From assembly GCF_011617705.1 (NCBI RefSeq), contig NZ_CP050154.1, positions 1,550,001-1,614,000 of the forward strand: a stretch of DNA of 64,000 nucleotides, given 5' to 3'. Source of the stretch: Brevibacterium limosum. GTDB taxonomy: Bacteria; Actinomycetota; Actinomycetes; Actinomycetales; Brevibacteriaceae. Below the pieces are notes generated by a model. That model searched no databases. It was not told the DNA's origin and saw only the letters and a program-made list of their open reading frames with translations. The position numbers and the translations under genes are program-made. This document shows, in pieces, positions 1-15,281 of the stretch (its first letter is position 1; each line of letters starts with the position of its first letter).

Positions 1-1455
1 GGGGTTGTCGAAGGTCAGACCGAAGTCGGGCATCCCGTCGGCTGTCTGCTTCCACCGGATCATGCCGTAGGCATAGTCCTCGAGGATGACCACGACGAGG
101 TCCAACCCGAGCCTGACCGCGGTCTCCATCTCCTGGCTGTTCATCATGAACCCGCCGTCGCCGACCACGGCCATGACTCGACGTTCCGGGTAGGTCAGCT
201 TCGCCCCGATCGCCGAGGGCAGTCCGGCTCCCATCGTCGCCAGTGCATTGTCGAGCAGCAGGGTATTCGCCCTGGTCGTGCGGTAGTTGCGGGCGAACCA
301 GATCTTGTACATCCCGTTGTCCAGCGCCACGATCCCATCGGTCGGCACGACGTCACGAACCTCCTGGACGATGCGCTGCGGGATGAACCGATCCTCATCG
401 GCCCCCTCGTGGATCTTGATGAGGATCTCATCGCGCATCGGCAGGAGCGTCTCGGCGGTGGGCACGGGACCTCCGAGCACCTCGGCGAGCCTGTCCAAGG
501 ACGGACCCAGGTCACCGATGACCTCGAACTGCGGGAAATACACCTGTTCGACGATGGCGGGACGGTACCCGATGTGCACGACGGTCGGTCCGTTCTCATC
601 CATCGTGAACGGCGGCTTCTCCGTCGTATCGTGACCGATGGTGACGATGACATCGGCGGCGTCGATCGCGTCGTGGACGTAGTCACCGGACGTCAGCGCC
701 GCCGTGCCCATGTACAGATCCGACGCTCCCGTCACCGACCCCTTGCCCATCTGTGTGGTGACGTAGGGGATGCGCATCTGGGCGACGAAACGCGACAGCG
801 CCTCACTGCACGAAGCCCGGGAGGCATCCGCACCGAGCATGAGCAGCGGGTTCTTCGCCTCCTTGATGACGTTCGCGGCGTTCGCAATCGCCGTATCCCC
901 GGCGACGGGCCGAGTGTTCGTATGCGGTTCGATGAGCTCGAACCCGTCGACCGGCATCCCGGCAATGTCCTCGGGCAGCTCGAGGTGCACCGGTCCCGGA
1001 CGCTCGGCCTGAGCGGCACGGAACGCCTCCCGGACCATCGTCGGAATCATCGCCGCCGAGGTGATCTGCTTGCTCACCTTCGTCAGCGGATCCATCGTCG
1101 CCACCGTATTCACCATCTGGAACGCTGCCTGCTCGGCCGTCCTGATGCCCTTCTGCCCGGTGATCATGATGACCGGCATCCCGCCGAGGTGGGCGTACGC
1201 CGCCCCGGTCGCCAGATTGAGTGCCCCCGGGCCCAGGGTCGTCAGCACGACACCTGGCCGTCCCGTCAGCCGCCCATAGGTGGCGGCCATGAATGCGGCG
1301 GCCTGCTCGTGGCGGGTGAGGATGAGTTCGATCGATGAGTCCCGCAGAGAGTCGACGAAGTCGAGGTTCTCCTCACCGGGAATGCCGAAAATCCGCTCGA
1401 CGCCCTCGTTCTCGAGGGCTCTGACCATGACATCGGATGCACGTTGTGTCGTCAT
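1..1455 (-). CDS. Acetolactate synthase large-subunit-like TPP enzyme (partial, C-terminus off window)
   Basis: The reading frame is open from the ATG at 1455 to the window edge (485 codons), so the C-terminus is missing. The N-terminus has the FGIPGEEN and RHEQAAAFMA motifs of the TPP-enzyme pyrimidine domain, with the catalytic Glu in RHEQ. A central domain follows, then GDGGFMMNSQE, the TPP/Mg binding motif, close to the window edge. The family condenses two pyruvates to acetolactate or performs related 2-oxo acid chemistry with TPP and FAD. The GEEN variant of the N-terminal motif marks a subgroup distinct from the biosynthetic IlvB, so the exact substrate is open. No small subunit is visible. 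The gene is transcribed away from pheS. Confidence 0.8.
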   Translation of the reverse strand, partial: MTTQRASDVMVRALENEGVERIFGIPGEENLDFVDSLRDSSIELILTRHEQAAAFMAATYGRLTGRPGVVLTTLGPGALNLATGAAYAHLGGMPVIMITGQKGIRTAEQAAFQMVNTVATMDPLTKVSKQITSAAMIPTMVREAFRAAQAERPGPVHLELPEDIAGMPVDGFELIEPHTNTRPVAGDTAIANAANVIKEAKNPLLMLGADASRASCSEALSRFVAQMRIPYVTTQMGKGSVTGASDLYMGTAALTSGDYVHDAIDAADVIVTIGHDTTEKPPFTMDENGPTVVHIGYRPAIVEQVYFPQFEVIGDLGPSLDRLAEVLGGPVPTAETLLPMRDEILIKIHEGADEDRFIPQRIVQEVRDVVPTDGIVALDNGMYKIWFARNYRTTRANTLLLDNALATMGAGLPSAIGAKLTYPERRVMAVVGDGGFMMNSQEMETAVRLGLDLVVVILEDYAYGMIRWKQTADGMPDFGLTFDNP

Positions 1456-1533
1456 GGTCCCGACCCTACGCTTCTCACGATTCGATCCCAATGATCCAGA
1501 ACACACCCTCGCACCCAGGTGAGATCCCACCCG

Positions 1534-1630
1534 CACCGAGGTGGACCACCCACCCAGCGGACGTAGGGAACCGTAGGGCCGCCTCGGCGAAGGGAACGCC
1601 CACCGAGGCGGCCCACCCACCCAGCGGACG
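1534..1630 (+). repeat. 30-bp direct repeat and competing hairpins in the pheST leader
   Basis: Two near-identical 30-bp units lie at 1534-1563 and 1601-1630 (28 of 30 bases match; the last 18 bases are identical). Between them GGCCGCCTCGG (1577-1587) is perfectly complementary to CCGAGGCGGCC (1603-1613), giving an 11-bp stem with a 15-nt loop. The same segment can instead pair with CCGAGGTGG at 1536-1544 in the upstream repeat (9 bp, one G-U). The two pairings exclude each other, which is the layout of an attenuator. No T-run follows, so a classic intrinsic terminator is not shown. Confidence 0.5.
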
Positions 1631-1661
1631 CCGCCCCAGTTCTCGGCAGGGGAGACGATAG

Positions 1662-2768
<1,107 letters not shown>

Positions 2769-2769
2769 T

Positions 2770-5355
2770 ATGCGCGTCCCACTGAACTGGCTGGCCGACT
2801 ACGTCGATCTCCCAGCCGATATCGACCCCCATGCCCTCGCCGCCGAATTCGCGTCCATCGGACTCGAGGAAGAGGACTTCTTCGGACCCGAGATCACCGG
2901 CCCCCTCGTCGTCGGCCGCGTGCTCGAACTCGTCGAAGAAGAGCACTCGAACGGTAAGACCGTCAACTGGTGCCGCGTCGACGTCGGCCCCGAACACAAC
3001 GAGGATCTCGACGATCCGAAGGACCCGCAGCCCGGCGAGGAGCGCCCGAGCCGCGGCATCATCTGCGGTGCGCACAACTTCGTGCCCGGCGACCTCATCG
3101 TCGCCTGCCTGCCCGGAGCCGTCCTGCCCGGTGACTTCAAGATCGCCGCCCGGAAGACCTACGGTCACAAGTCCGATGGCATGATCTGCTCGGCCAAGGA
3201 GCTCGGACTCGGCGAGGATCACTCCGGCATCATCGTTTTGTCGGATCTTGGGCTGACCGGTGAGCCCGGCGATGACGCGATCGCGCTGCTCGGCCTCGAC
3301 CAGGTCACCCTCGACGTCAACGTCACCCCCGACCGCGGCTACCAGCTGTCGATGCGCGGCATCGCCCGCGAATATGCGCAGATGAAGGGTCAGACTTTCA
3401 CCGACATCGGATCCGCCGAGGTGGCTCCCACCAATGCGGCCACCGACGATGGATTCCCGGTATCGGTTGAGGACAACAACCCCATCAACGAGGTGGCCGG
3501 CTGTGACCAGTTCACCGCCCTTCAGGTCACCGGCCTGAACCCTGCCGCCAAGACCCCGTTCTGGATGCAGCGTCGCCTGCAGCAGGCGGGCATGCGCCCG
3601 ATCAGCCTGACCGTGGATGTCACGAACTACGTCATGCTCGAACTCGGACAGCCGCTGCACGCCTACGACACTTCGCTGCTCGGCGACGAGATCGTCGTGC
3701 GCCGCGCCACCGCGGGGGAGAAGTTCACTACTCTCGATGATGTCGAGCGCAAGCTTGACCCCGAGGATCTGCTCATCACCGACCGCGGTGCTGGAGCTTC
3801 TGGCAAGGGTGGGAAGGTCATCGGCCTGGCCGGAGTCATGGGCGGAGCCGCCGTCGAAGTCAACGACCAGACCACCGACGTCGTCATCGAGGCCGCTCAC
3901 TTCGACCCGATCTCGATTGCTCGCACCTCGCGTCGTCACAAGCTGTCTTCGGAGGCCTCGCGTCGCTTCGAACGTGGAGTCGATCCGAATCTCGCTCCTG
4001 TGGCTGCCCGTCGCTGCGCCGATCTGCTCGTCGAACTCGGCGGCGGCACGCTCAGCCCAGCGACCACACAGGTAGGACAGGCTCCGGAACCGACCGTGCT
4101 CGATCTCAAGGTCGCCCGTGTGGCGTCGCTGGTCGGTGTCGATTACACCGTCGCCGAGGTGACCTCACTTCTTGAGGGCATCGGCGCGAGCGTGTCGACT
4201 AAGGACGATGAGACGGTGTCGGTGACCGTGCCCAGCTGGCGCACGGACATCACCGACGACGTCGACCTCATCGAGGAAGTCGCCCGCACCGGCGGCTACG
4301 ACCGGATTCCGTCCGTTCAGCCCGCCGCTCGGGCCGGCAACGGACTGACGGTGGCGCAGAAGACGCGTCGCCGGATCTCGAACCTGTTGGCTGCCGACGG
4401 GTTCACCGAGGTGCTGTCGTACCCGTTCACGAACGAAAAACGGGACGATCAACTGCGGCTCGAGGCCGATAATGTGCGCCGACAGCACGTGCGTCTGACG
4501 AATCCGATGTCCGAAGACCTGCCGCTCATGCGCACCAACCTGCTCTCGACTCTCGTCGACCTCGTGGTTCGCAACCAGGGCCGTGGAGCCAAAGACGTTG
4601 CGCTCTTCGAAGCCGGACTCGTATCCACCTCGGCGGGAATGCCTGAGGGACCGGGGCCGCGTCACCTGCCGGGATACCACCCGAGCGATGACGAGCTCGA
4701 GGCGATCTACGCCTCGGTGCCGGCCCAGCCCTACCACTACGCGGGCATCATCTCCGGCAATGCCGAGATGCCCGGTGTCTGGGGCAAGGGCCGCAAGGCC
4801 GAGGCCACCGACGTCATCGACACGGTCCGCCGGATCGCATCAGTCAACGGCCTTGAAGTCACCGTCGAGGCCGACCAGATCGCTCCGTGGCATCCCGGTC
4901 GCGTGGCGAAGTTCGTTCTTGCCGATGGTCAGTTGCTCGGCCATGCCGGTGAGCTGCACCCGAAGGTGTGCGAGAACCTTGGCCTGCCGGCACGGACCGT
5001 CGGATTCGAGATCGATCTTGACGCATTACTGGCTCAAGAGGATCTGCGTGCCTGGGACGGTGCGCTGTCGACCTACCCGGTGTCGCGTCAGGATGTCGCC
5101 CTCATCGTCGATGCCGAACTGCCGACGCAGACTCTGGCGGCGACGTTGCGCGAAGGTGCAGGGGAGGAGCTCGAACTGCTCGAGACTTTCGACCTTTACA
5201 CCGGGGACCAGCTGCCCGAGGGCAAGAAGTCGCTGGCGTTCCGCCTGACCTTCCGCGCCCCTGATCGCACGCTCAAGGCCGATGAGGCCTCGGCGATGCG
5301 GGAAGCGGCGACGAAGTTGGCCGCCGAGCGTCACGGCGCTGAAGTCCGCAGCTGA
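2770..5355 (+). CDS. pheT: Phenylalanyl-tRNA synthetase beta subunit
   Basis: The 861-aa beta subunit forms the heterotetramer with PheS and does tRNA recognition and editing. The order is the bacterial standard: start MRVPLNWLADYV, an EMAP/OB tRNA-binding domain (about 40-160, with CGAHNF and LPGAVLPG), B3/B4 editing and B5 domains (about 210-480), the synthetase-like core, and a C-terminal FDX-ACB anticodon-binding domain (about 765-860, around YPVSRQDVALIVD). The length is normal for actinobacteria. It starts one base after the pheS stop and is followed by a strong terminator. Confidence 0.96.
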   Translation: MRVPLNWLADYVDLPADIDPHALAAEFASIGLEEEDFFGPEITGPLVVGRVLELVEEEHSNGKTVNWCRVDVGPEHNEDLDDPKDPQPGEERPSRGIICGAHNFVPGDLIVACLPGAVLPGDFKIAARKTYGHKSDGMICSAKELGLGEDHSGIIVLSDLGLTGEPGDDAIALLGLDQVTLDVNVTPDRGYQLSMRGIAREYAQMKGQTFTDIGSAEVAPTNAATDDGFPVSVEDNNPINEVAGCDQFTALQVTGLNPAAKTPFWMQRRLQQAGMRPISLTVDVTNYVMLELGQPLHAYDTSLLGDEIVVRRATAGEKFTTLDDVERKLDPEDLLITDRGAGASGKGGKVIGLAGVMGGAAVEVNDQTTDVVIEAAHFDPISIARTSRRHKLSSEASRRFERGVDPNLAPVAARRCADLLVELGGGTLSPATTQVGQAPEPTVLDLKVARVASLVGVDYTVAEVTSLLEGIGASVSTKDDETVSVTVPSWRTDITDDVDLIEEVARTGGYDRIPSVQPAARAGNGLTVAQKTRRRISNLLAADGFTEVLSYPFTNEKRDDQLRLEADNVRRQHVRLTNPMSEDLPLMRTNLLSTLVDLVVRNQGRGAKDVALFEAGLVSTSAGMPEGPGPRHLPGYHPSDDELEAIYASVPAQPYHYAGIISGNAEMPGVWGKGRKAEATDVIDTVRRIASVNGLEVTVEADQIAPWHPGRVAKFVLADGQLLGHAGELHPKVCENLGLPARTVGFEIDLDALLAQEDLRAWDGALSTYPVSRQDVALIVDAELPTQTLAATLREGAGEELELLETFDLYTGDQLPEGKKSLAFRLTFRAPDRTLKADEASAMREAATKLAAERHGAEVRS

Positions 5356-6439: not shown

Positions 6440-7252
6440 CTACTTAATGCTCAGTTCTCTTGGCTCAGTTCTCTTGATCGTGAAGCCAGCACACACGAGT
6501 AGGACGGCCACTACTACGTCGATCGGCTTCCAAATTGATGCAGGAAGGATAACCAGTACTGCGGGTAGGAATAAGACAAGTAACGCTATGCCGAACGTGG
6601 ACCATGCGGCCACACCACTGCGGATTGAAGCGTAGATAATATAGACACCTGTTATTGTCAGCGCCCATCGCAGGAACTGGTAGTAACCGTAGGGCATATC
6701 AAGGGCGCCAATGAGAGCAATGGCTGCTGCAATGAGAAGGACTGGCAGCGTCGGGCGGGTGGTTATTGGTGAAGTCGCTGCTTCTACCTCAGCTAAATGT
6801 GGACTCGGTCCCTGGTAGTCAGCAGTCATGCCAGCGCCCCAACTTTGCAGACCGTGGGCTATTCTATTGAGCCGATTGGTCATCATTGACACCGCTTCAT
6901 CGATGCCTTCCTCCGACGCCATCGACCTAAGTGCGTTTAAGAAGTTGAGCGCGTTCACGACAATCTTTCGGGCAATCTCGTCATCTGTGTGAACGGTGCT
7001 CGCCACTGGACCTGTACCTATCGTCTGATAGCCAGCGTCCGGATCTAAGACTTGTCCCCGAGCTATAAACTGTGCTTTGTCTGTCCAAACCAGGATCCGG
7101 CCAAAAACAGGAGATTGGCGCAATACGTGCCATTCGATGACGACGCGGCTATCCCCATCAGATTCGTGCACCTTTAAGTCACTGGGTTCGCAGTTGGCAA
7201 TGCGAGCGATGAAAATCGCGACTCTTCGTCCACGTGCCAGACTCTCATTCAT
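6440..7252 (-). CDS. Membrane protein with C-terminal four-helix region (DUF6804-like)
   Basis: A 270-aa protein of unknown function. The N-terminal 160 residues are soluble and mixed alpha/beta, with no signal peptide. The C-terminal 100 residues hold about four hydrophobic helices (near 166-185, 192-210, 217-235, 240-257). The segment around MPYGYYQFLRW resembles the small actinobacterial DUF6804 membrane family; that match is from memory and not certain. The DNA is clearly AT-richer than pheST, which points to acquisition. It is divergent from the DUF6308-like gene across a 139-bp gap that probably holds both promoters. Confidence 0.6.
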   Translation of the reverse strand: MNESLARGRRVAIFIARIANCEPSDLKVHESDGDSRVVIEWHVLRQSPVFGRILVWTDKAQFIARGQVLDPDAGYQTIGTGPVASTVHTDDEIARKIVVNALNFLNALRSMASEEGIDEAVSMMTNRLNRIAHGLQSWGAGMTADYQGPSPHLAEVEAATSPITTRPTLPVLLIAAAIALIGALDMPYGYYQFLRWALTITGVYIIYASIRSGVAAWSTFGIALLVLFLPAVLVILPASIWKPIDVVVAVLLVCAGFTIKRTEPRELSIK

Positions 7253-7391
7253 TCACCGAGTATATAGTAGGTTTGTAGTGTCGGAATGGCGAAATTGTCT
7301 ACCAAGTTACCAATCGTGTTCCCAGCGTCCTATTGTTTGAAGAGCTGGCGCTTCGGATTCGATCGCGCCCCTGAGCAAGGTGAGTAAGTGA

Positions 7392-8135
7392 ATGGTTGGC
7401 GTCGGAATTATATTTCCTACGGTCAGCGTAGATGCTATAGATTTTGCCAAGAGGCAGTGTCTGCTCGTTCTCAAGGACGATCGGACTCCGGAACGTGTCC
7501 GTCAATATTACGATGCCAAGACCAATTACGCTGGTGCTACGTTTGCTGGGCTTGAGCCAAATGCCTCGGACGAGATCACCGCAACCGACTTGCTAGCAGT
7601 AACAACGCTGTCAGTGGACATTCCGGTACTTGCAGTTCGACGTATTCTTGAAGATGAAGCCATCCAAAACGAACTTCGTGAAAAGCTGGAGTCTCTACCC
7701 AGTTGTACGCTTGAAAATACAGTTGAGCGGGACTTTCCGGCCATGGAAGAATTTTATGACCTGGTCAAGTCGTTGCTGGTCAAGGCAGACACCAAGAGTT
7801 CGAATGCATGGGTGACAGCTAGCAAGATCACTGCACGAAAGCGGCCGGCCTTGTTTCCCGTGCGAGACAACGTCGTGTGCAAATTGCTGGGAATCAATCG
7901 CCTTGGTGATCGTGCGAAAGACTGGGTCGTGTTCCGCGAGTTGATGCGGGATGAGGAAATACGTGCGGTTCTGAGTTCCACAGTGTCCAAGGCAGAGGCT
8001 GTGAAAGATGAGCGGACAGTTAAGTTCGACTTGGAACCGCTGAGGCAATTAGACGTAGCCCTCTGGACAGCCGAATCAAAATGGCTCTTCCCAGATGAGG
8101 GTGTAGGTCGGCCGGGCGCGTCGGTCCGCAGATAG
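7392..8135 (+). CDS. DUF6308-like protein, 3' end replaced by an ISL3 terminus
   Basis: A 247-aa protein of unknown function. The order RVRQYYDAKTN, FAGLEPNASDEITATDLLAVTTLSV and a late W-rich helix (LWTAESKW) matches the actinobacterial DUF6308 family as I recall it; the catalytic role, if any, is unknown. The last 18 codons or so (from 8083) are not native: the DNA there is the left end of the ISL3 element also found at 10358, so the original C-terminus was lost or replaced. The first 230 codons cover nearly the whole family length, so the product may still fold. Base composition is AT-rich like its divergent neighbour. Confidence 0.6.
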   Translation: MVGVGIIFPTVSVDAIDFAKRQCLLVLKDDRTPERVRQYYDAKTNYAGATFAGLEPNASDEITATDLLAVTTLSVDIPVLAVRRILEDEAIQNELREKLESLPSCTLENTVERDFPAMEEFYDLVKSLLVKADTKSSNAWVTASKITARKRPALFPVRDNVVCKLLGINRLGDRAKDWVVFRELMRDEEIRAVLSSTVSKAEAVKDERTVKFDLEPLRQLDVALWTAESKWLFPDEGVGRPGASVRR

Positions 8136-8248
8136 ACGTCGAGATCTCCCGACGACGGAGGTTCCTACGCCATCCATCCGAAAGACCTCGACGTGTCCGA
8201 CGCTACCCCGCCGGCCGGCTTCGGCCGCCCTGAACTGACCGCCTTCGC
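8083..8248 (+). mobile_element. ISL3-family left-end remnant
   Basis: These 166 bases match 10358-10523, the left end of the ISL3 element, with only a handful of substitutions. The shared block covers the terminal repeat (GGCTCTTCCCAGATGAGGG), the leader and the first codons of the transposase, then ends abruptly. The outer 25 bases pair with the element's right end at 11773-11797 with about five mismatches, which marks the true IS end. The following 228 bases (8249-8476) contain nothing I recognise. Confidence 0.75.
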
Positions 8249-8476
8249 GTCTTATCCCAATCGACTCTGATCGGGTCTGCTGATCCTCTCGACGAGAACG
8301 CAGCGACATCACAGCCAGCCAACCCCGACCGTTCGGGAAGCCGGGACACGTCACATGGCCTGTGCTGCGGGCGTGTCGAGTGGGTCGTCCAGGGTCGACG
8401 CAGGAGCGGCTACGCGACGTGCTGAGAGGTGGTTCCAGTCGAGCACTAGCACACCGGCTACAGGCATGGCGATAGG

Positions 8477-9418
8477 TCAGGAACGGCGTCGCTCCCTACG
8501 CAGGAGGGAGCGCAGAGTCTCGGCGTTCGCGTAGCCGACCCGTAGCGCGATCTCGGCGGAGGTGAGGTCCGTGGTTGCTGAGAGGTGTCGAGCTCGTTCG
8601 ATGCGAAGCCGTTGGACGAAGCCGAGCGGAGTGAGGTTGAGCGCCGCACGGACTCGTCGTTCGAGTGTGCGCCGGCTGGTGCCGAGCGACTGCGCGACGA
8701 AGGCGACGTTGAACGGTTCGTCCAGGCGGGCGCGCACGAAGCGTTCGAACTCGACGACGATCGGGTCCTCGTGCCGGAGATGTTCGTAGGCGACGAAGGC
8801 CGCCTGCGACGGGCGCTCGTCGATGATGAGGAGCTTGGCGACGTGTTGGGCCAGGTCGGGGCTGATCGATCGCACGAGTGAGAGCGCGAGGTCGATGTGG
8901 GCGAACGCGGCGCCGGCGGTGACGAGGTTCCCGTCGACCACGACCATGGTGTCGAGATCGAGGGCGACGGTCGGATAGCGCTTCAGGAACTCCGGCCCCA
9001 GGAACCAGCTGGTCGTCGCCCGCCGATGATGCATCCGTCCGGTCTCGGCAACAGCGAACACGCCGGTGCATGCCGCGGCGATCCGGGTGGTCGCCTCGTC
9101 GAGGCGCCCGAGCGAGGCGATGACCGAACGAGCATCTCGGCTCTGGAGGGCGTCGTTGGTAGCGGCGGCCGTAAGGGTTCCAAGCGCAGGGACGACGACC
9201 ACGTCGAACTCTGCGGACTCCGACAGTGGGTGGTCCACCGACAGGGTCATCGATGCCGTCGTGGTCACTCGCCGTTTCGGTCCGAGGATGGCGAGTTCGA
9301 TCGGGTCGATCCGCGGGTCGACATCGCCGCGGGCTCCGTCGGCCACCCGCACGATGTCGATGATCGACGCGATAGCCGAACCGAAGCAGCCGTCAATCGC
9401 GATCAGTCCAATACGCAT
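8477..9418 (-). CDS. GlxA-family AraC-type transcriptional regulator
   Basis: A 313-aa regulator with an N-terminal DJ-1/PfpI-like (GATase1-like) domain (about 1-170, with FDVVVVPALGT and AACTGVFAVAETG, a Cys in the nucleophile-elbow position) and a C-terminal AraC double helix-turn-helix (about 215-313, with AQSLGTSRRTLERRV and AEIALRVGYANAETL). Such proteins bind a small ligand or none and activate neighbouring genes. The ATG at 9418 (MRIGLIAIDG) is preferred over one at 9505 because the family starts directly with the first beta strand and the longer form would overlap the promoter. It is divergent from the monooxygenase at 9526, its likely target. The region is GC-rich, unlike its neighbours. 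Confidence 0.85.
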   Translation of the reverse strand: MRIGLIAIDGCFGSAIASIIDIVRVADGARGDVDPRIDPIELAILGPKRRVTTTASMTLSVDHPLSESAEFDVVVVPALGTLTAAATNDALQSRDARSVIASLGRLDEATTRIAAACTGVFAVAETGRMHHRRATTSWFLGPEFLKRYPTVALDLDTMVVVDGNLVTAGAAFAHIDLALSLVRSISPDLAQHVAKLLIIDERPSQAAFVAYEHLRHEDPIVVEFERFVRARLDEPFNVAFVAQSLGTSRRTLERRVRAALNLTPLGFVQRLRIERARHLSATTDLTSAEIALRVGYANAETLRSLLRRERRRS

Positions 9419-9525
9419 GACGTAAACAATAGCAATACTGCCGTATACGCCACTACCCACCGGCCCTCGCTCGTCATAAGCTGAACTCGTTATACGAAGA
9501 ACCACGACTTCAAGGAGAGTCCCTC

Positions 9526-9837
9526 ATGTCAACACCCGCATCACTTCCGTATGCCTTCGTCGCCAAGATCGTCGCGGCCGATGGACAGCACGACGCGGTC
9601 GCCGATCTGCTCGCCGGCGCTGTCGCACTCGCCAACGAAGAAGTAGGAACGATTGTCTGGTTCGCGGTCAGGACCGACGCCGACACCTTCTGGATCTTCG
9701 ATGCATTCCCCGACGAGGCCGCTCGCGACGCCCACGCCAACGGCGCCATCGTCGCAGCCCTGATGGCCAACCAGCACCTCCTCAGCGCAGCACCCGAGAT
9801 CCTGGCTGCAGACGTCCTCGCGTCCAAGCTCCCGTAG
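9526..9837 (+). CDS. ABM-domain (YgiN-like) putative monooxygenase
   Basis: A 103-aa single-domain protein of the antibiotic biosynthesis monooxygenase / quinol monooxygenase-like fold: an alpha+beta ferredoxin-like dimer that oxidises quinols or aromatics, often without a cofactor. Typical features are the opening strand (YAFVAKIVAADGQ), GTIVWFAVRTDADTFWIFDAF in the middle and DAHANGAIVAAL before the end. AAGGAGA at 9511-9517 gives a clear ribosome-binding site. The 107-bp gap to the GlxA-type regulator is a divergent promoter region. The substrate is unknown. Confidence 0.8.
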   Translation: MSTPASLPYAFVAKIVAADGQHDAVADLLAGAVALANEEVGTIVWFAVRTDADTFWIFDAFPDEAARDAHANGAIVAALMANQHLLSAAPEILAADVLASKLP

Positions 9838-10051
9838 TCCGCCAACGCACGAGACGATCGCGCCCCGCCGAGCCCGTCGCCAGGTCGCGACGCAACGCCA
9901 TGCTGCGTTGCCGAGCGGTGTGAGGCCTATCGGCACACGGACAGGATGGCGGCCGTGAGCGCTCAGCCGGCTAGGGGTCCGTCGCAGAGGAGAGCGACGT
10001 CGGTGGCGGGCAGAGCCGTGAGGCCAGCGCATCGCTCGACCACCAGAACAG

Positions 10052-10091
10052 AAAAGCCCCGGCCCTGCGTTTCCGCAGGTCAGGGGCTTTT
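10052..10091 (-). terminator. Strong hairpin terminator downstream of the tRNA fragment
   Basis: AAAAGCCCC (10052-10060) pairs with GGGGCTTTT (10083-10091), and an inner CCTGCG/CGCAGG stem has a TTTC loop. The A and T tracts make it usable in both directions. On the minus strand it directly follows the tRNA 3' end, as expected for the native terminator of that tRNA. Confidence 0.8.
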
Positions 10092-10097
10092 CGCCGG

Positions 10098-10130
10098 AGC
10101 CGCCTGTCGGAATCGAACCGGCGACCTAAT
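10098..10130 (-). other. tRNA 3'-end fragment (tRNA-Thr-like), probable attachment-site scar
   Basis: Read on the minus strand this segment has AGGTCG, the T-arm loop GGTTCGATTCC, the 3' acceptor strand AGGCGGC and a discriminator followed by CC. It matches the 3' half of actinobacterial tRNA-Thr (CGT) as I remember it. The 5' half, with D-arm and anticodon, is absent, so this is not a functional tRNA. Integrases of genomic islands use exactly this part of tRNA genes as the attachment site. Confidence 0.65.
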
Positions 10131-10357
10131 CACGTCGGCTTTGCGTCTATCGCTTGATGCGTCCCCTGGGCGAACGAGCCGCTGACCTGCGCAAACGCCG
10201 AGAATGGGGGACGCTGCCATCCGGTGGTGACCGACGAGGACCGACCAGTACCGATCGTTTCACCGGAGCTTGCGGCAGCGTCGAAGCCGAGCAAGCTCCA
10301 TTCCTTTAGCTCACCGCGCCCTCCTCCTCGCCGGTCCCGTCGTCGAAGACGTTTCAG

Positions 10358-11797
10358 GGGTCTTCTCAGATGACGGTGTAGGTCGGCCGGGCACGTCGGT
10401 CCGCAGATAGACGTCGAGGTCTCCCGACGACGGAGGTTCCTACGCCATCCATCCGAAAGACCTCGACGTGTCCGACGCTACCCCGCCGGCCGGCTTCGGC
10501 CGCCCTGAACAGACCGCCTTCGCTCGACTCGACGGCCTCGGTCAGAGCGTGACCGGGCAACGACTTGAACCGGACCGTGCGGCCCTCGCGTGCCGCGTGG
10601 TGGAACCAGATCAGTGGTGCCGACGGTGCGGCAGCGAAGGCGCTGCTCGTGACACCGTGATCCGGCGGTTGGCCCACGAGCCGCTGGTCTGGCGACCGAC
10701 CGTGCTGGCAGTTGTAGTGCGCCGCTACCGCTGTGCCGACTGCGGACATGTGTGGCGCCAAGACACCAGCGCCGCGGCGGAGCGACGCGCGAAGCTCTCG
10801 CGCACCGGGCTGCGGTGGGCGCTGGAAGGGAGCGTGGTCGCACACCTCACCGTCGCCCGTGTCGTCGAGGGACTCGGGGTCGCGTGGGACACCGCCACCA
10901 ACGCGGTCCCGGCTGAAGGCAAGCGGCTGCTGATCAACGACCCCACGCGGTTTGAGGGCGTGAAGGTCATTGGCGTCGATGAGCACGTCTGGCGCCACAC
11001 CAGGCGTGGCGACAAGTACGTCACCGTGATCATCAACCTCACCCCGGTCCGCGATGGCGCCGGCCCAGCAAGGCTGCTGGACATGGTCGAGGGCCGGTCG
11101 AAGGCGGCGTTCAAGACCTGGCTCGCCGACCGCGACGACGCCTTCCGTGACGCGGTCGAGGTGGTCGCGATGGACGGCTTCACCCGGTTCAAGACCGCCG
11201 CTGAAGAGGAGATCCCGGACGCGGTCACGGTGATGGATCCCTTCCACGTCGTACGCCTGGCCGGTGACGCCCTCGACAGGTGCCGGCGCCGGGTCCAACT
11301 CGCGATCCACGGGCACCGTGGGTTCAGGGACGACCCGCTCTACAAGTCGCGGCGCACGCTGCACACCGGCGCGGACCTGCTCACCGACAAGCAGAGCGAC
11401 AGGCTACGCGCGCTGTTCGTTGATGACGCTCACGTCGAGGTCGAGGCGGCCTGGGGTGTCTACTAGCGCATGATCGCCGCCTATCGCCACGAGGACCGGC
11501 AACGTGGCCGCGAGCTCATGGAGAAGCTGATCACCGACCTCAGCGCCGGCGTCCCCAAGGTGCTCACCGAGCTCACCACCCTGGGCCGGACCCTGAAGTA
11601 GGCGAGCCGCTGGCGTGCTCGCCTACTTCGAACGACCCGGCACCAGCAACGGGCCGACCGAGGCCCTCAACGGACGGCTCGAACACCTGCGCGGCTCCGC
11701 GCTCGGGTTCCGCAACCTGACCAACTACATCGCCCGAAGCCTGCTCGAGACCGGCGGCTTCAGACCCCAACTCCTACACCCCCGATTGGGATGAGCC
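10358..11797 (+). mobile_element. ISL3-family insertion sequence, inactivated
   Basis: A 1440-bp element. The left end (GGGTCTTCTCAGATGACGG) and the inverted right end (complement of 11773-11797) agree over about 25 bases with several mismatches and share GGTGTAGG. I see no target duplication in the flanks. The transposase is broken. A second fragment of the same left end is at 8083-8248. Confidence 0.8.
10468..11794 (+). pseudogene. ISL3-family transposase, broken by a nonsense codon and a frameshift
   Basis: From GTG 10468 the frame has a zinc-finger N-terminus (CRRCG and CADCG), then the DDE transposase domain with VIGVDEH and VAMDGFTRF. It stops at TAG 11464 after AAWGVY. In-frame sequence resumes at once (RMIAAYRHEDRQRGRELMEK), so the stop replaces one codon. 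A second break follows LGRTLK: one extra T at about 11599 creates TAG and shifts the frame, after which LAYFERPGTSNGPTEALNGR and FRNLTNYIARSLLETGG complete the protein to TGA 11792. The element cannot move unaided. Confidence 0.88.
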
Positions 11798-11897
11798 AGG
11801 AACCATCGAGTACAGCACGTTTCGACGACCACTAAATACCGCGCGCTACAACGCAGATATTGTGATTCCTAGACTTTGGGCGGGGCTAGTTGGAAAC

Positions 11898-14279
11898 CTA
11901 TCCCGAATAATCGGTCAATAGCGTTTGAGGATCCGACACCTCAAAGTCGTTCTCCCCGCTGCGGCGAACCCAGAGTCCATTGGCAGCTGTCAAGCGCAAT
12001 TCAGTGGTGCCGCCTGAAGAATTATTGTTGGAAGGAAGTTGAGCAGTTAAAATTTCTGAGTCTTCAGGGTCAACTCCGAAGAGAACCCGGTCACCCTGTC
12101 GCATCCGCTTAGTTACCAATTCAGAGAGCGCTCCGCTAAGGCTTGGTGCAAGTCGGTTCACGGCCTCGTCGAGAAATTCCCGTACTGGGCCGGATGAATA
12201 TTCCGAATTGATGGGATCGGAAGTAGAGTTTCCGTGGAAATGCCACCTCTGGACAGACTGTGCGAGTCCAGATTCATCAAACTTGATGCCATCTTCGAGC
12301 AAAGCAGCTTGACGACGGTCCACCGGCATGCCACCAAGTATCCTATGTTCATCGAGGCTCCCGTTGGCCTCCAATATCTTCCAGGCCAATGGAATGTTCT
12401 CCACAGACAACAAGAGAGTGAGGTCGGAAATCGTGGTGCTACAAGCCTCAGCCAAATCACCAATTGTGACCCACCGTGCGGACGGAATTTGCGATAAAGC
12501 TTCGTTGACTGGCAACCTATTTAAAGAAGTAGATTCTGATGTCTTCTGTTCAAGTGGAGGGATCCATAGTTTAGCAACTAGTTCGCTGATCTGAGTTCCA
12601 CGTTTAACTATTTCATTCCGCGTCCAGTGTTTTTCGATTGCAATTGATTTATTTAATTCAATATTACTCTTCTCAATGAGGAGTTTTTTCTTATCTTTAA
12701 AGGGTCTATTGCTGAGATGTGAATTGTATCCAGACAGCGTTAAATTTGCGAGCGTATGCACATATGTCGCATGCACAGCTTCCGGGGAGCTGAATGTTCC
12801 CAGATCGGTAGAGAGTTCAGTTATCCATTCTTGGGTCAAGTTCTGCGGCATGACGTGCTCAATAGTGGTTTTTTTCAGGCTCGCGGGTTCGTTTCCTGCT
12901 AGCTCTTCTTCCAGCCAGGAAAGAAGAGTCTTTCTCTGTCTGGCGGTACCGGATCTGTAGAAATTCACCGAGGTAACAGCTTCTGATACTGTTTCGTCGT
13001 TCGCGTAGTCTTTGTTGTCCCTTGAAAGATAATCTCGGAGGGAATGCTCTACGTTTTTGAAATCTATGGAGCTGTAGGCTCGCATAAGAATGCGTGATAA
13101 GGCGTTGTGAGGTGCTCTTACTAGCAATCGTCGTACGAGGAATGATTCAAGAACGGAAAGCGCGGAGGATGCTTGCGAGCTAGTTACATTTCCTTGTTGG
13201 CGTTGGCTCAATATTCCTAGAACGAGCGGATCGATTGATTCAATTCCAAAGTCGACAAGTCGCTGCAGGGCGCGCTGCAGCGATGGGTCAGTTTCTTTTC
13301 TCGGGTGACGCATTATCTCGAGAAGCTTAGAGAGGTCATTGAAGTACTTAACCTCCTCTCGCAGTTCTTCTGCGCTAAATGAATCCATTCTTTGGGATTG
13401 TTTTTTGAAAGTGTCGTCTTTTTTGACTTCGGTATTAACCCAGGTGTGTTCTAGCCAGAAGAGGTGCGCAAGATCAGCACGTGAAAGACGATCTTGCATG
13501 GGGCGCCAGTACTGATCGTAAGTGGCTTCTGAAAGATTTTTAAGCCGGGAGAAGAAGAAATTGCGGAGTAGGTCGCCCTGCGTGAGTTTTAGGCCGGTAT
13601 TATTAAGAGATTCGAAGATGCTGTAAACGTTGTCGCCAGCCTCGGCCACAATTGTTACGAATCTCAATCCATTTAGCGTGGCATCTTGTATTTGATCGAG
13701 ATGTGATTTGTTTAGATTCCCTACAGCCTTAAGCAGTTCGGATCTGAAATACTTATATGCCTCTATAAGGTTGCTAGTTTCGGAGGTGCTTGGGTTTCCG
13801 TCAATTATTTCGACGAAAATCTCCCGGTCGGCCTGTGTCGGCCAAAGGCGAAATCTTTCAGGGTGGGTGGTCTTATGCCTGTGGACTAGAACGTTTTCTT
13901 CGATCTCTGCAGCGTCACTGGCATCAGGGAAGTTTTCTTTATATACATCCCTCATTGCTGCCAGTAGCATGGTGAGTGTTGTAAGACGCTGTTGTCCGTC
14001 AACTACTAAATAGGTGCGATCGCTTGGCATCTGGTGTCCACTATCAAGGACTAACGTGCCAAGGAAGTGTTCAGCTGTCGGGTCCGTCGATTTGGATTCT
14101 GCTAGGTCCTTGATATCTTCCCAGAGCTTTTCGAACTGGGCTCTCTTCCAGTCGTAGGTTCTCTGATAGAGAGGAATCTCGTATCTTGTGGCACTGCTTC
14201 CGAGAACTCCCTGCAGTATGTCTTTGAGAACTTGCACGCTCGACCTCTTCGTTGCTGGTGGAAAGCTTGAGTTGCTCAT
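11898..14279 (-). CDS. DUF262/DUF1524 (GmrSD-like) protein with C-terminal alkyltransferase-like domain
   Basis: A 793-aa protein. Residues 13-250 form a DUF262 (GmrS/ParB-like) NTPase domain with IPLYQRTYDW (35-44), VDGQQRLTTL (93-102) and FESLNNTGLKLTQGDLLRN (222-240). Residues about 430-570 form a DUF1524 His-Me nuclease domain with IEHVMPQN (473-480) and a later Asn/Arg-rich segment. Residues about 588-680 read like the Ada/MGMT DNA-binding fold (VTIGDLAEAC, then NIPLAWKILEANGSL, GG, RRQAALLEDG), but the reactive PCHR site is replaced by PLAWK, as in non-catalytic alkyltransferase-like proteins. The tail (715-793) is unassigned. This architecture suggests a type IV restriction or antiphage enzyme that reads modified DNA. 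The ATG at 14279 is chosen from family alignment; its RBS is weak, and an open frame runs back to 14489. The DNA is AT-rich and probably transferred. Confidence 0.8.
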   Translation of the reverse strand: MSNSSFPPATKRSSVQVLKDILQGVLGSSATRYEIPLYQRTYDWKRAQFEKLWEDIKDLAESKSTDPTAEHFLGTLVLDSGHQMPSDRTYLVVDGQQRLTTLTMLLAAMRDVYKENFPDASDAAEIEENVLVHRHKTTHPERFRLWPTQADREIFVEIIDGNPSTSETSNLIEAYKYFRSELLKAVGNLNKSHLDQIQDATLNGLRFVTIVAEAGDNVYSIFESLNNTGLKLTQGDLLRNFFFSRLKNLSEATYDQYWRPMQDRLSRADLAHLFWLEHTWVNTEVKKDDTFKKQSQRMDSFSAEELREEVKYFNDLSKLLEIMRHPRKETDPSLQRALQRLVDFGIESIDPLVLGILSQRQQGNVTSSQASSALSVLESFLVRRLLVRAPHNALSRILMRAYSSIDFKNVEHSLRDYLSRDNKDYANDETVSEAVTSVNFYRSGTARQRKTLLSWLEEELAGNEPASLKKTTIEHVMPQNLTQEWITELSTDLGTFSSPEAVHATYVHTLANLTLSGYNSHLSNRPFKDKKKLLIEKSNIELNKSIAIEKHWTRNEIVKRGTQISELVAKLWIPPLEQKTSESTSLNRLPVNEALSQIPSARWVTIGDLAEACSTTISDLTLLLSVENIPLAWKILEANGSLDEHRILGGMPVDRRQAALLEDGIKFDESGLAQSVQRWHFHGNSTSDPINSEYSSGPVREFLDEAVNRLAPSLSGALSELVTKRMRQGDRVLFGVDPEDSEILTAQLPSNNNSSGGTTELRLTAANGLWVRRSGENDFEVSDPQTLLTDYSG

Positions 14280-14475
14280 TGGAGCACTTGGAGGTAAGTC
14301 TAGCTCGTGAGAGATCGTTTGGAGTGTCTCATAGCTTTGCTGGCAAGCGGTTAAGAGGGAGGTTGTTGGTTGCGCGCGGGATGTATTCGGTTCGATAGGC
14401 GACGGCGGTGGACCGGTGCCGATCGTCCTGTTTGGCAATAACATCCGATCCCAGGCGCGCTCGACGTGGCTCTTG

Positions 14476-15171
14476 TTATTCGTCAGCAATCATCCACTCG
14501 ACGATCGCAGCCACGTGAGCGTCTACGGAGTCGATGGCGGGCAGGGGAGCGGTCTCCGGTGGGACTAGCAGGCCGATCTCCGTGCACGACAGGGCCACAG
14601 CGTCAGCGCCACGAGCCTTGAGGTCGTTCATGATTTCGACGTAGCGGGCTCGGGAGGCATCGGTAAACTTCCCTTGGGTGAGTTCATCCCAGATGATCTG
14701 ATCGACCTCGAGGCACGTTGCCTCATCCGGTACCACAGTCTTGATGCCCTGTGCTTCGAGCCGGCCGGTGTAGAAGTCTTCGAGCATCGTCCATCGGGTG
14801 CCCAAAACCGCCAGCGTCGAAAAGCCCTGGCGCTTCGCCATAGTCGCGATCGAATCGACCATGTGAATGAGAGGCGCATCGACTGAGGCCACGATCGCCG
14901 GGGCGCACTTATGCATGAGATTGGTGGCAATCGCGACAGCTTCGGCGCCGCCATCGACTAAACGCTGCGCCGTCGCCGTCAGGGATGCGTCATTACCTGC
15001 CCAATCGTTGGCCTCCTGCAGCTCCCGGATGTCCGCGAAGTCGCACGAGTCGAGGAGGATCTGCGCGGAATGATGACCGCCGAGCTGCTTGGCCACTGCA
15101 TCGTTGACCTTCGTGTAGTACTCGATGCTCGAATGCCAGCTCATTCCACCCAGCAGACCGATCCTGCGCAT
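14476..15171 (-). CDS. Aspartate/glutamate racemase family protein (YgeA-like)
   Basis: A 231-aa PLP-independent racemase. It opens with MRRIGLLGGMSWHSSIEYY, the aspartate racemase signature. The first active-site position is Thr in AIATNLMHK and the second is Cys in ALSCTEIGLL. This Thr/Cys pair, instead of Cys/Cys, is known from E. coli YgeA, a broad-range amino-acid racemase of low activity. The ATG at 15171 has GAGGAG-like sequence upstream on the minus strand; an upstream ATG at 15270 would add 33 unrelated residues and run into the LysR promoter. It is divergent from the LysR-type gene. Confidence 0.85.
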   Translation of the reverse strand: MRRIGLLGGMSWHSSIEYYTKVNDAVAKQLGGHHSAQILLDSCDFADIRELQEANDWAGNDASLTATAQRLVDGGAEAVAIATNLMHKCAPAIVASVDAPLIHMVDSIATMAKRQGFSTLAVLGTRWTMLEDFYTGRLEAQGIKTVVPDEATCLEVDQIIWDELTQGKFTDASRARYVEIMNDLKARGADAVALSCTEIGLLVPPETAPLPAIDSVDAHVAAIVEWMIADE

Positions 15172-15281
15172 ACTCCCACTCCTCAAATCAGCACTTAAGT
15201 CACGACGATTACTTCCAGTGTGGTGCGCATCATCCACCTCCGGTAGACCCAGATCGCTCTGCTCTGACATAAGCTGGACTT

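What the first reader, a model, noticed from the sequence alone, without database searches (positions are those of the whole stretch)
11898..14279. DUF262/DUF1524 defence-like protein fused to an inactive alkyltransferase-like domain
The N-terminal two thirds match GmrSD-type modification-dependent restriction proteins. Residues 588-680 follow the Ada/MGMT winged-helix pattern, including the segment around the reactive cysteine, but PCHR is replaced by PLAWK. Alkyltransferase-like proteins bind O6-alkylguanine and do not repair it, so the fusion could guide a nuclease to modified DNA. AT-rich composition and IS neighbours fit a mobile defence gene.
Basis: partly seen in the sequence, partly recalled or inferred. 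Interest (0 to 1): 0.62.

Follow-up and report, generated by a model that had tools for sequence, protein, structure and literature searches.

The report
GmrSD nuclease with alkyltransferase-like tail domain
An intact, recently inserted anti-phage-type DNA-cutting gene (GmrSD family) carries a C-terminal domain folded like a DNA-alkylation repair protein, but that domain has lost the residues needed both to repair and to recognise alkylated guanine, so it is most likely a re-purposed DNA-binding module of an enzyme type already described in the literature.

Summary
Window 11898-14279 (-) is an intact 793-aa GmrSD-type protein: DUF262/GmrSD_N 27-243 (E 4e-39), DUF1524/GmrSD_C 427-566 (E 2e-24), with DGQQR and HNH motifs intact. 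Residues 583-681 have the MGMT/ATL fold: the AlphaFold2 model matches S. pombe Atl1 at Z 10.6-10.9 (2.3-2.4 A over 94 residues), and a profile of 15 such fusions finds Atl1 first in the PDB (E 3e-8). The gene is AT-rich (47.6% GC against 62%), lies in a 2.7-kb insert missing from six congeners, and abuts an ISL3 remnant. The fusion itself is not new: Machnicka et al. 2015 reported GmrSD homologues carrying PF01035, mainly in Streptomyces. The 'guided to O6-alkylguanine' idea is not supported: besides Cys (Ala632), the protein lacks the base-flipping Tyr (Ile606) and the arginine finger (Ser618). The finger is absent from 19 of 20 GmrSD fusions but present in 24 of 26 non-fused homologues. Best reading: an NTP-dependent GmrSD-type restriction nuclease whose degenerate ATL-like winged helix is an accessory DNA-binding or target-selection module; its true ligand is unknown.

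The parts
11898..14279 (-). Complete coding sequence, 793 aa, GmrSD-family protein with ATL-like domain (start codon ATG 14279 inferred; the open frame runs up to 14489)
13551..14201 (-). GmrSD_N / DUF262 (GmrS, ParB/Srx-like), residues 27-243
   Evidence: Pfam PF03235 E 4.4e-39; model aligns to DndI, SspE, BrxU
13986..14000 (-). DGQQR motif, residues 94-98 (NTP hydrolysis motif)
   Evidence: motif role from PMC4619093 and PMC11662687
12582..13001 (-). GmrSD_C / DUF1524 (GmrD, HNH nuclease), residues 427-566
   Evidence: Pfam PF07510 E 2.4e-24
12843..12860 (-). HNH motif EHVMPQ, residues 474-479; further invariant N512, N519, K530 downstream
   Evidence: invariant columns in 26 family members
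12237..12533 (-). MGMT/ATL-like winged-helix domain, residues 583-681
12462..12464 (-). Ile606, at the position of the base-flipping Tyr (Atl1 Y25)
12426..12428 (-). Ser618, at the position of the arginine finger (Atl1 R39, AGT R128)
12384..12386 (-). Ala632, at the position of the reactive Cys (AGT C145, Atl1 W56)
11901..12212 (-). C-terminal helical/beta module, residues 690-793, without a Pfam match; replaced by other C-terminal modules (such as DUF4268, DUF5655) in other family members
11743..14479 (.). Insert of 2,737 bp (GC 0.487) carrying only this gene, absent at this place from six congeneric genomes compared
10468..11466 (+). ISL3-family transposase fragment; the IS-related block ends at about 11742, next to the insert

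Best explanation
It is a single-chain GmrSD-type (type IV-like) restriction nuclease, acquired horizontally. The GmrS part binds and hydrolyses NTP through DGQQR. The GmrD part cuts or nicks DNA through its HNH site. The C-terminal ATL-like winged helix, stripped of cysteine, arginine finger and tyrosine, is an accessory DNA-binding or target-selection module that helps load the nuclease on DNA or tunes which DNA it attacks; it is neither a repair enzyme nor a classical O6-alkylguanine sensor. Shown here: domain content, intact nuclease and NTPase motifs, ATL fold, loss of the three residues, mobile context. Inferred: enzymatic activity, phage defence, and the role of the ATL-like domain.
For: Pfam domains and intact motifs. 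The whole-protein model (pLDDT 85.6) matches SspE (Z 24.2), DndI (Z 22.5) and BrxU (Z 12.8), all experimentally characterised relatives. Residues 583-681 match Atl1 alone and Atl1 bound to DNA (Z 10.6 and 10.5; 10.9 and 10.7). The arginine finger is lost in 19 of 20 fusions against kept in 24 of 26 non-fused homologues (Fisher p 9e-10 treating rows as independent). Standalone ATL/MGMT proteins separate from fusion domains with 99/95 support. The MGMT helix-turn-helix binds the minor groove without sequence specificity (PMC10779285). Some relatives lie beside other defence genes: type II R-M with Vsr, type I R-M, a type IV enzyme and CRISPR-Cas I-E.
Against: No activity has been measured. A winged helix that has lost its key DNA-contact residues could equally have become a protein-protein or structural module. 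The immediate window neighbourhood holds no second recognised defence gene; the gene sits alone next to an IS remnant. The translation start has no clear Shine-Dalgarno sequence.
Confidence: 0.5

Rival explanations
1. The domain is a true alkyltransferase-like sensor: it flips O6-alkylguanine or a related phage base into its pocket and so guides the nuclease to modified DNA.
For: Best fold and profile match is Atl1, an inactive alkyl-DNA binder; cysteine is absent in all fusions; most fusions, though not this one, keep the tyrosine; ATL-EndoV nuclease fusions are reported in archaea (PMC10779285).
Against: The arginine finger and tyrosine that define base flipping in ATLs are Ser618 and Ile606 here, and 19 of 20 fusions lack the arginine. 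I know of no common phage DNA carrying O6-alkylguanine (own knowledge). The host already has an ATL-like protein with the arginine (L038) and an MGMT.
Confidence: 0.1
2. The domain binds a different modified base or backbone feature in the old alkyl pocket, with a new flipping residue (Gln in many fusions), giving each subfamily its own type IV specificity.
For: The domain is conserved across distant fusions although its DNA-contact residues vary; 9 of 20 fusions carry Gln at the finger position; known GmrSD enzymes act on modified cytosines (PMC8565348).
Against: No direct evidence for any ligand; BrxU recognises modified DNA without such a domain (PMC8565348).
Confidence: 0.2
3. It is a phosphorothioate-sensing effector like SspE or DndI, with self/non-self discrimination in the DUF262 domain; the ATL-like domain is secondary.
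For: SspE and DndI are the top whole-protein structural matches; the P-x-Y-Q patch of DndI (P23, Y25, Q26) corresponds to P36, Y38, Q39.
Against: No DndC homologue in the host genome (TIGR03183); P36 and Q39 are nearly invariant in the family at large, so the patch is not diagnostic.
Confidence: 0.05
4. The ATL-like fold is now a structural or protein-interaction module (for example dimerisation or autoinhibition) and does not touch DNA.
For: Loss of all three signature residues in the window protein; long branch leading to the window/Nesterenkonia group (1.2 changes per column).
Against: The overall winged-helix fold is retained with good confidence, and extra C-terminal modules in this family vary from subfamily to subfamily, as target-recognition parts usually do.
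Confidence: 0.15

Closest known systems
GmrSD homologues with PF01035 DNA_binding_1 (Machnicka et al. 2015, PMC4619093)
   Same: Same domain content: DUF262, DUF1524 and an MGMT-type DNA-binding domain; the authors note it mainly in Streptomyces
   Different: In the passages read, that paper describes the domain by its active repair relatives and does not mention the lost Cys or arginine finger; the present protein is from another actinobacterial genus, with a different C-terminal tail and a domain too diverged to pass the PF01035 cut-off
BrxU, Eco94GmrSD (type IV restriction)
   Same: DUF262 with DGQQR and DUF1524 HNH in one chain; fold match Z 12.8 to BrxU
   Different: BrxU has no ATL-like domain; its specificity for modified cytosine is not shown for this protein
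SspE and DndI (phosphorothioate-sensing nickases)
   Same: Closest whole-protein structural matches (Z 24.2 and 22.5)
   Different: No DndC found in this host; matches to SspE and DndI end at residue 578, before the ATL-like domain
Atl1 (S. pombe) and bacterial ATL proteins
   Same: Fold of residues 583-681; no reactive cysteine
   Different: Arginine finger and flipping tyrosine absent; fused to a nuclease; Ala rather than Trp at the cysteine position
PADLOC Orf5 / HEC-06 protein models
   Same: Near full-length match to the DUF262-DUF1524 part (PDLC02693, E 7e-124)
   Different: Matches end at residue 572 and do not include the ATL-like domain

Membership tests
GmrSD family | DUF262/GmrSD_N and DUF1524/GmrSD_C domains over curated cut-offs | tested here: met
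   135.1 bits (cut-off 33.2) and 86.2 bits (cut-off 23)
GmrSD family | DGQQR motif in GmrS | tested here: met
   residues 94-98
GmrSD family | (E/D)HxxPQ ... L(G/A)NLxL ... NxxFxxK HNH motifs in GmrD | tested here: met
   E474 H475 P478 Q479, N512, N519, K530; motif definition from PMC4619093
GmrSD family | fold of solved GmrSD-type proteins | tested here: met
   SspE Z 24.2, DndI Z 22.5, BrxU Z 12.8
GmrSD family | NTP-dependent cleavage of modified DNA | not testable with these tools
   needs biochemistry
ATL (alkyltransferase-like) proteins | MGMT C-terminal winged-helix fold | tested here: met
   Atl1 3gva Z 10.6-10.9, 2.3-2.4 A over 94 residues
ATL (alkyltransferase-like) proteins | reactive Cys replaced | tested here: met
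   Ala632 at that position
ATL (alkyltransferase-like) proteins | arginine finger (Atl1 R39) | tested here: not met
   Ser618; no Arg or Lys within one residue either side
ATL (alkyltransferase-like) proteins | base-flipping tyrosine (Atl1 Y25) | tested here: not met
   Ile606
ATL (alkyltransferase-like) proteins | binding of O6-alkylguanine DNA | not testable with these tools
   needs a binding assay
MGMT/OGT alkyltransferases | PCHR active site with reactive Cys | tested here: not met
   PLAWK, Ala at the Cys position
SspE/DndI phosphorothioate-sensing systems | partner phosphorothioation genes in the same genome | tested here: not met
   no match to TIGR03183 DndC at E 0.001 in the complete host genome; ssp genes not searched separately
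SspE/DndI phosphorothioate-sensing systems | Tyr-containing sensing patch (DndI P23, Y25, Q26) | tested here: inconclusive
   P36, Y38, Q39 align, but this motif is family-wide

The most novel reading that the evidence does not exclude
Actinobacterial GmrSD enzymes carry a distinct subfamily of alkyltransferase-fold domains that gave up the arginine finger (often to Gln) and now read a different DNA modification, making the MGMT/ATL fold a new class of modified-base reader in phage defence.
Probability: 0.15. Interest if true: 0.75.

Novelty: new member of a known kind. Interest (0 to 1): 0.36.

Why it matters
Target recognition in GmrSD enzymes beyond modified cytosines and phosphorothioates is poorly understood. 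This family offers a natural series of nucleases in which a DNA-repair fold has been attached and then stripped of its repair and damage-recognition residues. That makes the question 'what does the extra C-terminal module read?' directly testable by domain deletion and binding assays.

Tried and rejected
Literature searches for DUF262 with alkyltransferase, alkyltransferase-like or MGMT found no paper; the earlier report uses the name DNA_binding_1. NCBIfam had no model for the protein. A scan of viral contigs found no encoded relative, and tblastn against phage records found only GmrSD-core relatives whose matches end by residue 575. The viral scan with the domain alignment could not run because no stretch was conserved enough. 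Active alkyltransferase was rejected because the cysteine is absent in all fusions. A Dnd-type partner was rejected because no DndC was found. For the C-terminal module 690-793, structural matches stay below Z 7 (3imo, an integron cassette protein, Z 6.1-6.8), too weak to name a fold. PADLOC's 'Orf5' label could not be tied to a named system with the tools at hand.

Full report
Check of the observation. Pfam assigns GmrSD_N to residues 27-243 and GmrSD_C to 427-566, both far over their cut-offs. Across 26 family members the DGQQR motif (94-98) is nearly invariant, and the nuclease residues E474, H475, P478, N512, N519 and K530 are invariant; all are present here, so the nuclease and NTPase sites look intact. 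The PADLOC library places the first 572 residues in its Orf5 and HEC-06 groups.

The alkyltransferase-like segment. On its own it is easily missed: PF01035 gives only E 0.074 for the window domain. Relatives make it clear. Fifteen homologous C-terminal domains, the window's among them, from DUF262-DUF1524 proteins were aligned. A profile of them finds S. pombe Atl1 first in the PDB (E 3.3e-8), then a Vibrio ATL, E. coli Ada and other MGMTs, and PF01035 hits 14 of the 15. Two controls rule out circularity. A profile built without the window and its two nearest relatives scores the window domain at E 6.3e-13, and one built only from standalone ATL/MGMT proteins scores it at E 4.2e-5; the best of 2000 shuffled copies reach 0.11 and 1.4. 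Profile-profile comparison between fusion domains and standalone proteins gives 99.2% probability.

Structure. The AlphaFold2 model of the whole protein has mean pLDDT 85.6. Its best matches are SspE (Z 24.2), DndI (Z 22.5) and BrxU (Z 12.8) for the body, and Atl1 (Z 10.6, 2.3 A, 94 residues) for 583-681, ahead of MGMT structures. A separate model of residues 573-793 repeats the result (Atl1 Z 10.9). Plain Foldseek on this model gives no match under E 0.001, but its first 24 rows are all MGMT/ATL entries, at probability 0.97 or more.

What the domain can and cannot do. According to PMC10779285, ATLs lack the cysteine but keep the arginine finger and the tyrosine that flip the damaged base. Aligned with non-fused homologues, the window protein has Ala632 at the cysteine, Ser618 at the arginine finger and Ile606 at the tyrosine. 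A shift of one residue either way at the finger still gives no Arg or Lys. Among 20 GmrSD fusions, 19 lack the arginine (Gln in 9, otherwise Val, Ala, Gly, Ser or His); among 26 non-fused homologues with a residue there, 24 keep it (Fisher p 9e-10, which ignores shared ancestry). One of the two exceptions, L046, looks like a broken GmrSD tail. A tree separates the standalone ATL/MGMT proteins from the fusion domains with 99/95 support, and the window groups with its Nesterenkonia-type relatives at 100/97. The fusion domains are thus divergent branches of the MGMT/ATL superfamily that have mostly lost the damage-reading residue. The O6-alkylguanine guide idea is not excluded, but it now lacks the evidence it rested on. 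The host also encodes an intact MGMT (L036), a second PCHR protein (L037) and an ATL-like protein with the arginine (L038) elsewhere.

Is the architecture new? No. Machnicka et al. 2015 (PMC4619093) list DNA_binding_1 (PF01035), with DUF4268 and DUF4357, among additional domains of GmrSD homologues, 'mainly from various Streptomyces species'. I did not find the loss of the arginine finger described in the papers searched. In a sample of 298 genomes weighted to relatives, at least 12 besides the host carry such a fusion, one with an internal stop. The C-terminal part differs between subfamilies: DUF5655 matches 6 and DUF4268 matches 4 of the 26 family members scanned.

Genomic setting. Six congeners have the Asp/Glu racemase gene (window 14476-15270) without the nuclease gene next to it; homology stops at window 14479/14480. 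In five of them the block matching window 8193-11742 (in part) follows the racemase end in the opposite orientation. The window strain therefore has an inversion of that block relative to them plus a 2,737-bp insert (11743-14479, GC 0.487) holding only this gene, next to an ISL3 transposase fragment. This fits a mobile single-gene defence cassette. Relatives of the gene lie beside a type II R-M set with Vsr (L075), a type I R-M set with a second GmrSD-type protein (L076), a type IV enzyme (L079), and a CRISPR-Cas I-E locus on a Streptomyces plasmid (L035).

Mechanism. By analogy with BrxU and DndI (PMC8565348, PMC11662687), NTP binding and hydrolysis in the DUF262 domain controls conformation and DNA release, and the HNH site nicks or cuts. 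A Dnd-type phosphorothioate partner is absent, which argues against a DndI-type role. The ATL-like winged helix would then add DNA contacts or a new specificity. I put 0.5 on the accessory DNA-binding or target-selection role, 0.2 on a specific new modified-base reader, 0.15 on a role without DNA contact, 0.1 on a true O6-alkylguanine sensor and 0.05 on a phosphorothioate-sensing effector.

Verdict.

Noticed in passing
window 8193-11742: This block is inverted relative to five congeneric genomes; in six congeners a gene that reads like a pabAB-type aminodeoxychorismate synthase, followed by a 284-aa gene, lies nearby and is not seen at this spot in the window.
   Followed up: partly
window 8083-8248 and 10358-10523: Two 166-bp direct copies, 96% identical, near the ISL3 transposase fragment, probably IS end remnants.
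   Followed up: partly
window 6440-7252 and 7392-8135: A lower-GC stretch (51% at 7001-8000) with DUF6804 and DUF6308 genes; possibly a second acquired segment.
   Followed up: no
L030 (G067), ORF 343-3495 (-), domain at residues 774-885 of the open frame: A GmrSD protein with a 1051-residue open frame has the ATL-like domain further downstream, after another module, and a long extra tail: a different domain order.
   Followed up: no
L052, L053, L055, L056: Actinobacterial proteins that group near the fusion domains rather than with standalone ATL/MGMT, lack the reactive Cys and are not fused to GmrSD in the stretch held; three of the four (L053, L055, L056) keep the arginine finger.
   Followed up: partly
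L056: A 231-aa frame joins an upstream stretch that may be a winged helix to an ATL-like domain that keeps the arginine; possibly a regulator.
   Followed up: no
L076 16396-18582 (-): A second DUF262 protein with a PDC-S14-like C-terminal domain lies near the fusion gene in a type I R-M island.
   Followed up: no
L051 (G497): The only GmrSD fusion in the set that keeps Arg at the finger position (HRRLIG); a natural comparator for testing base flipping.
   Followed up: no
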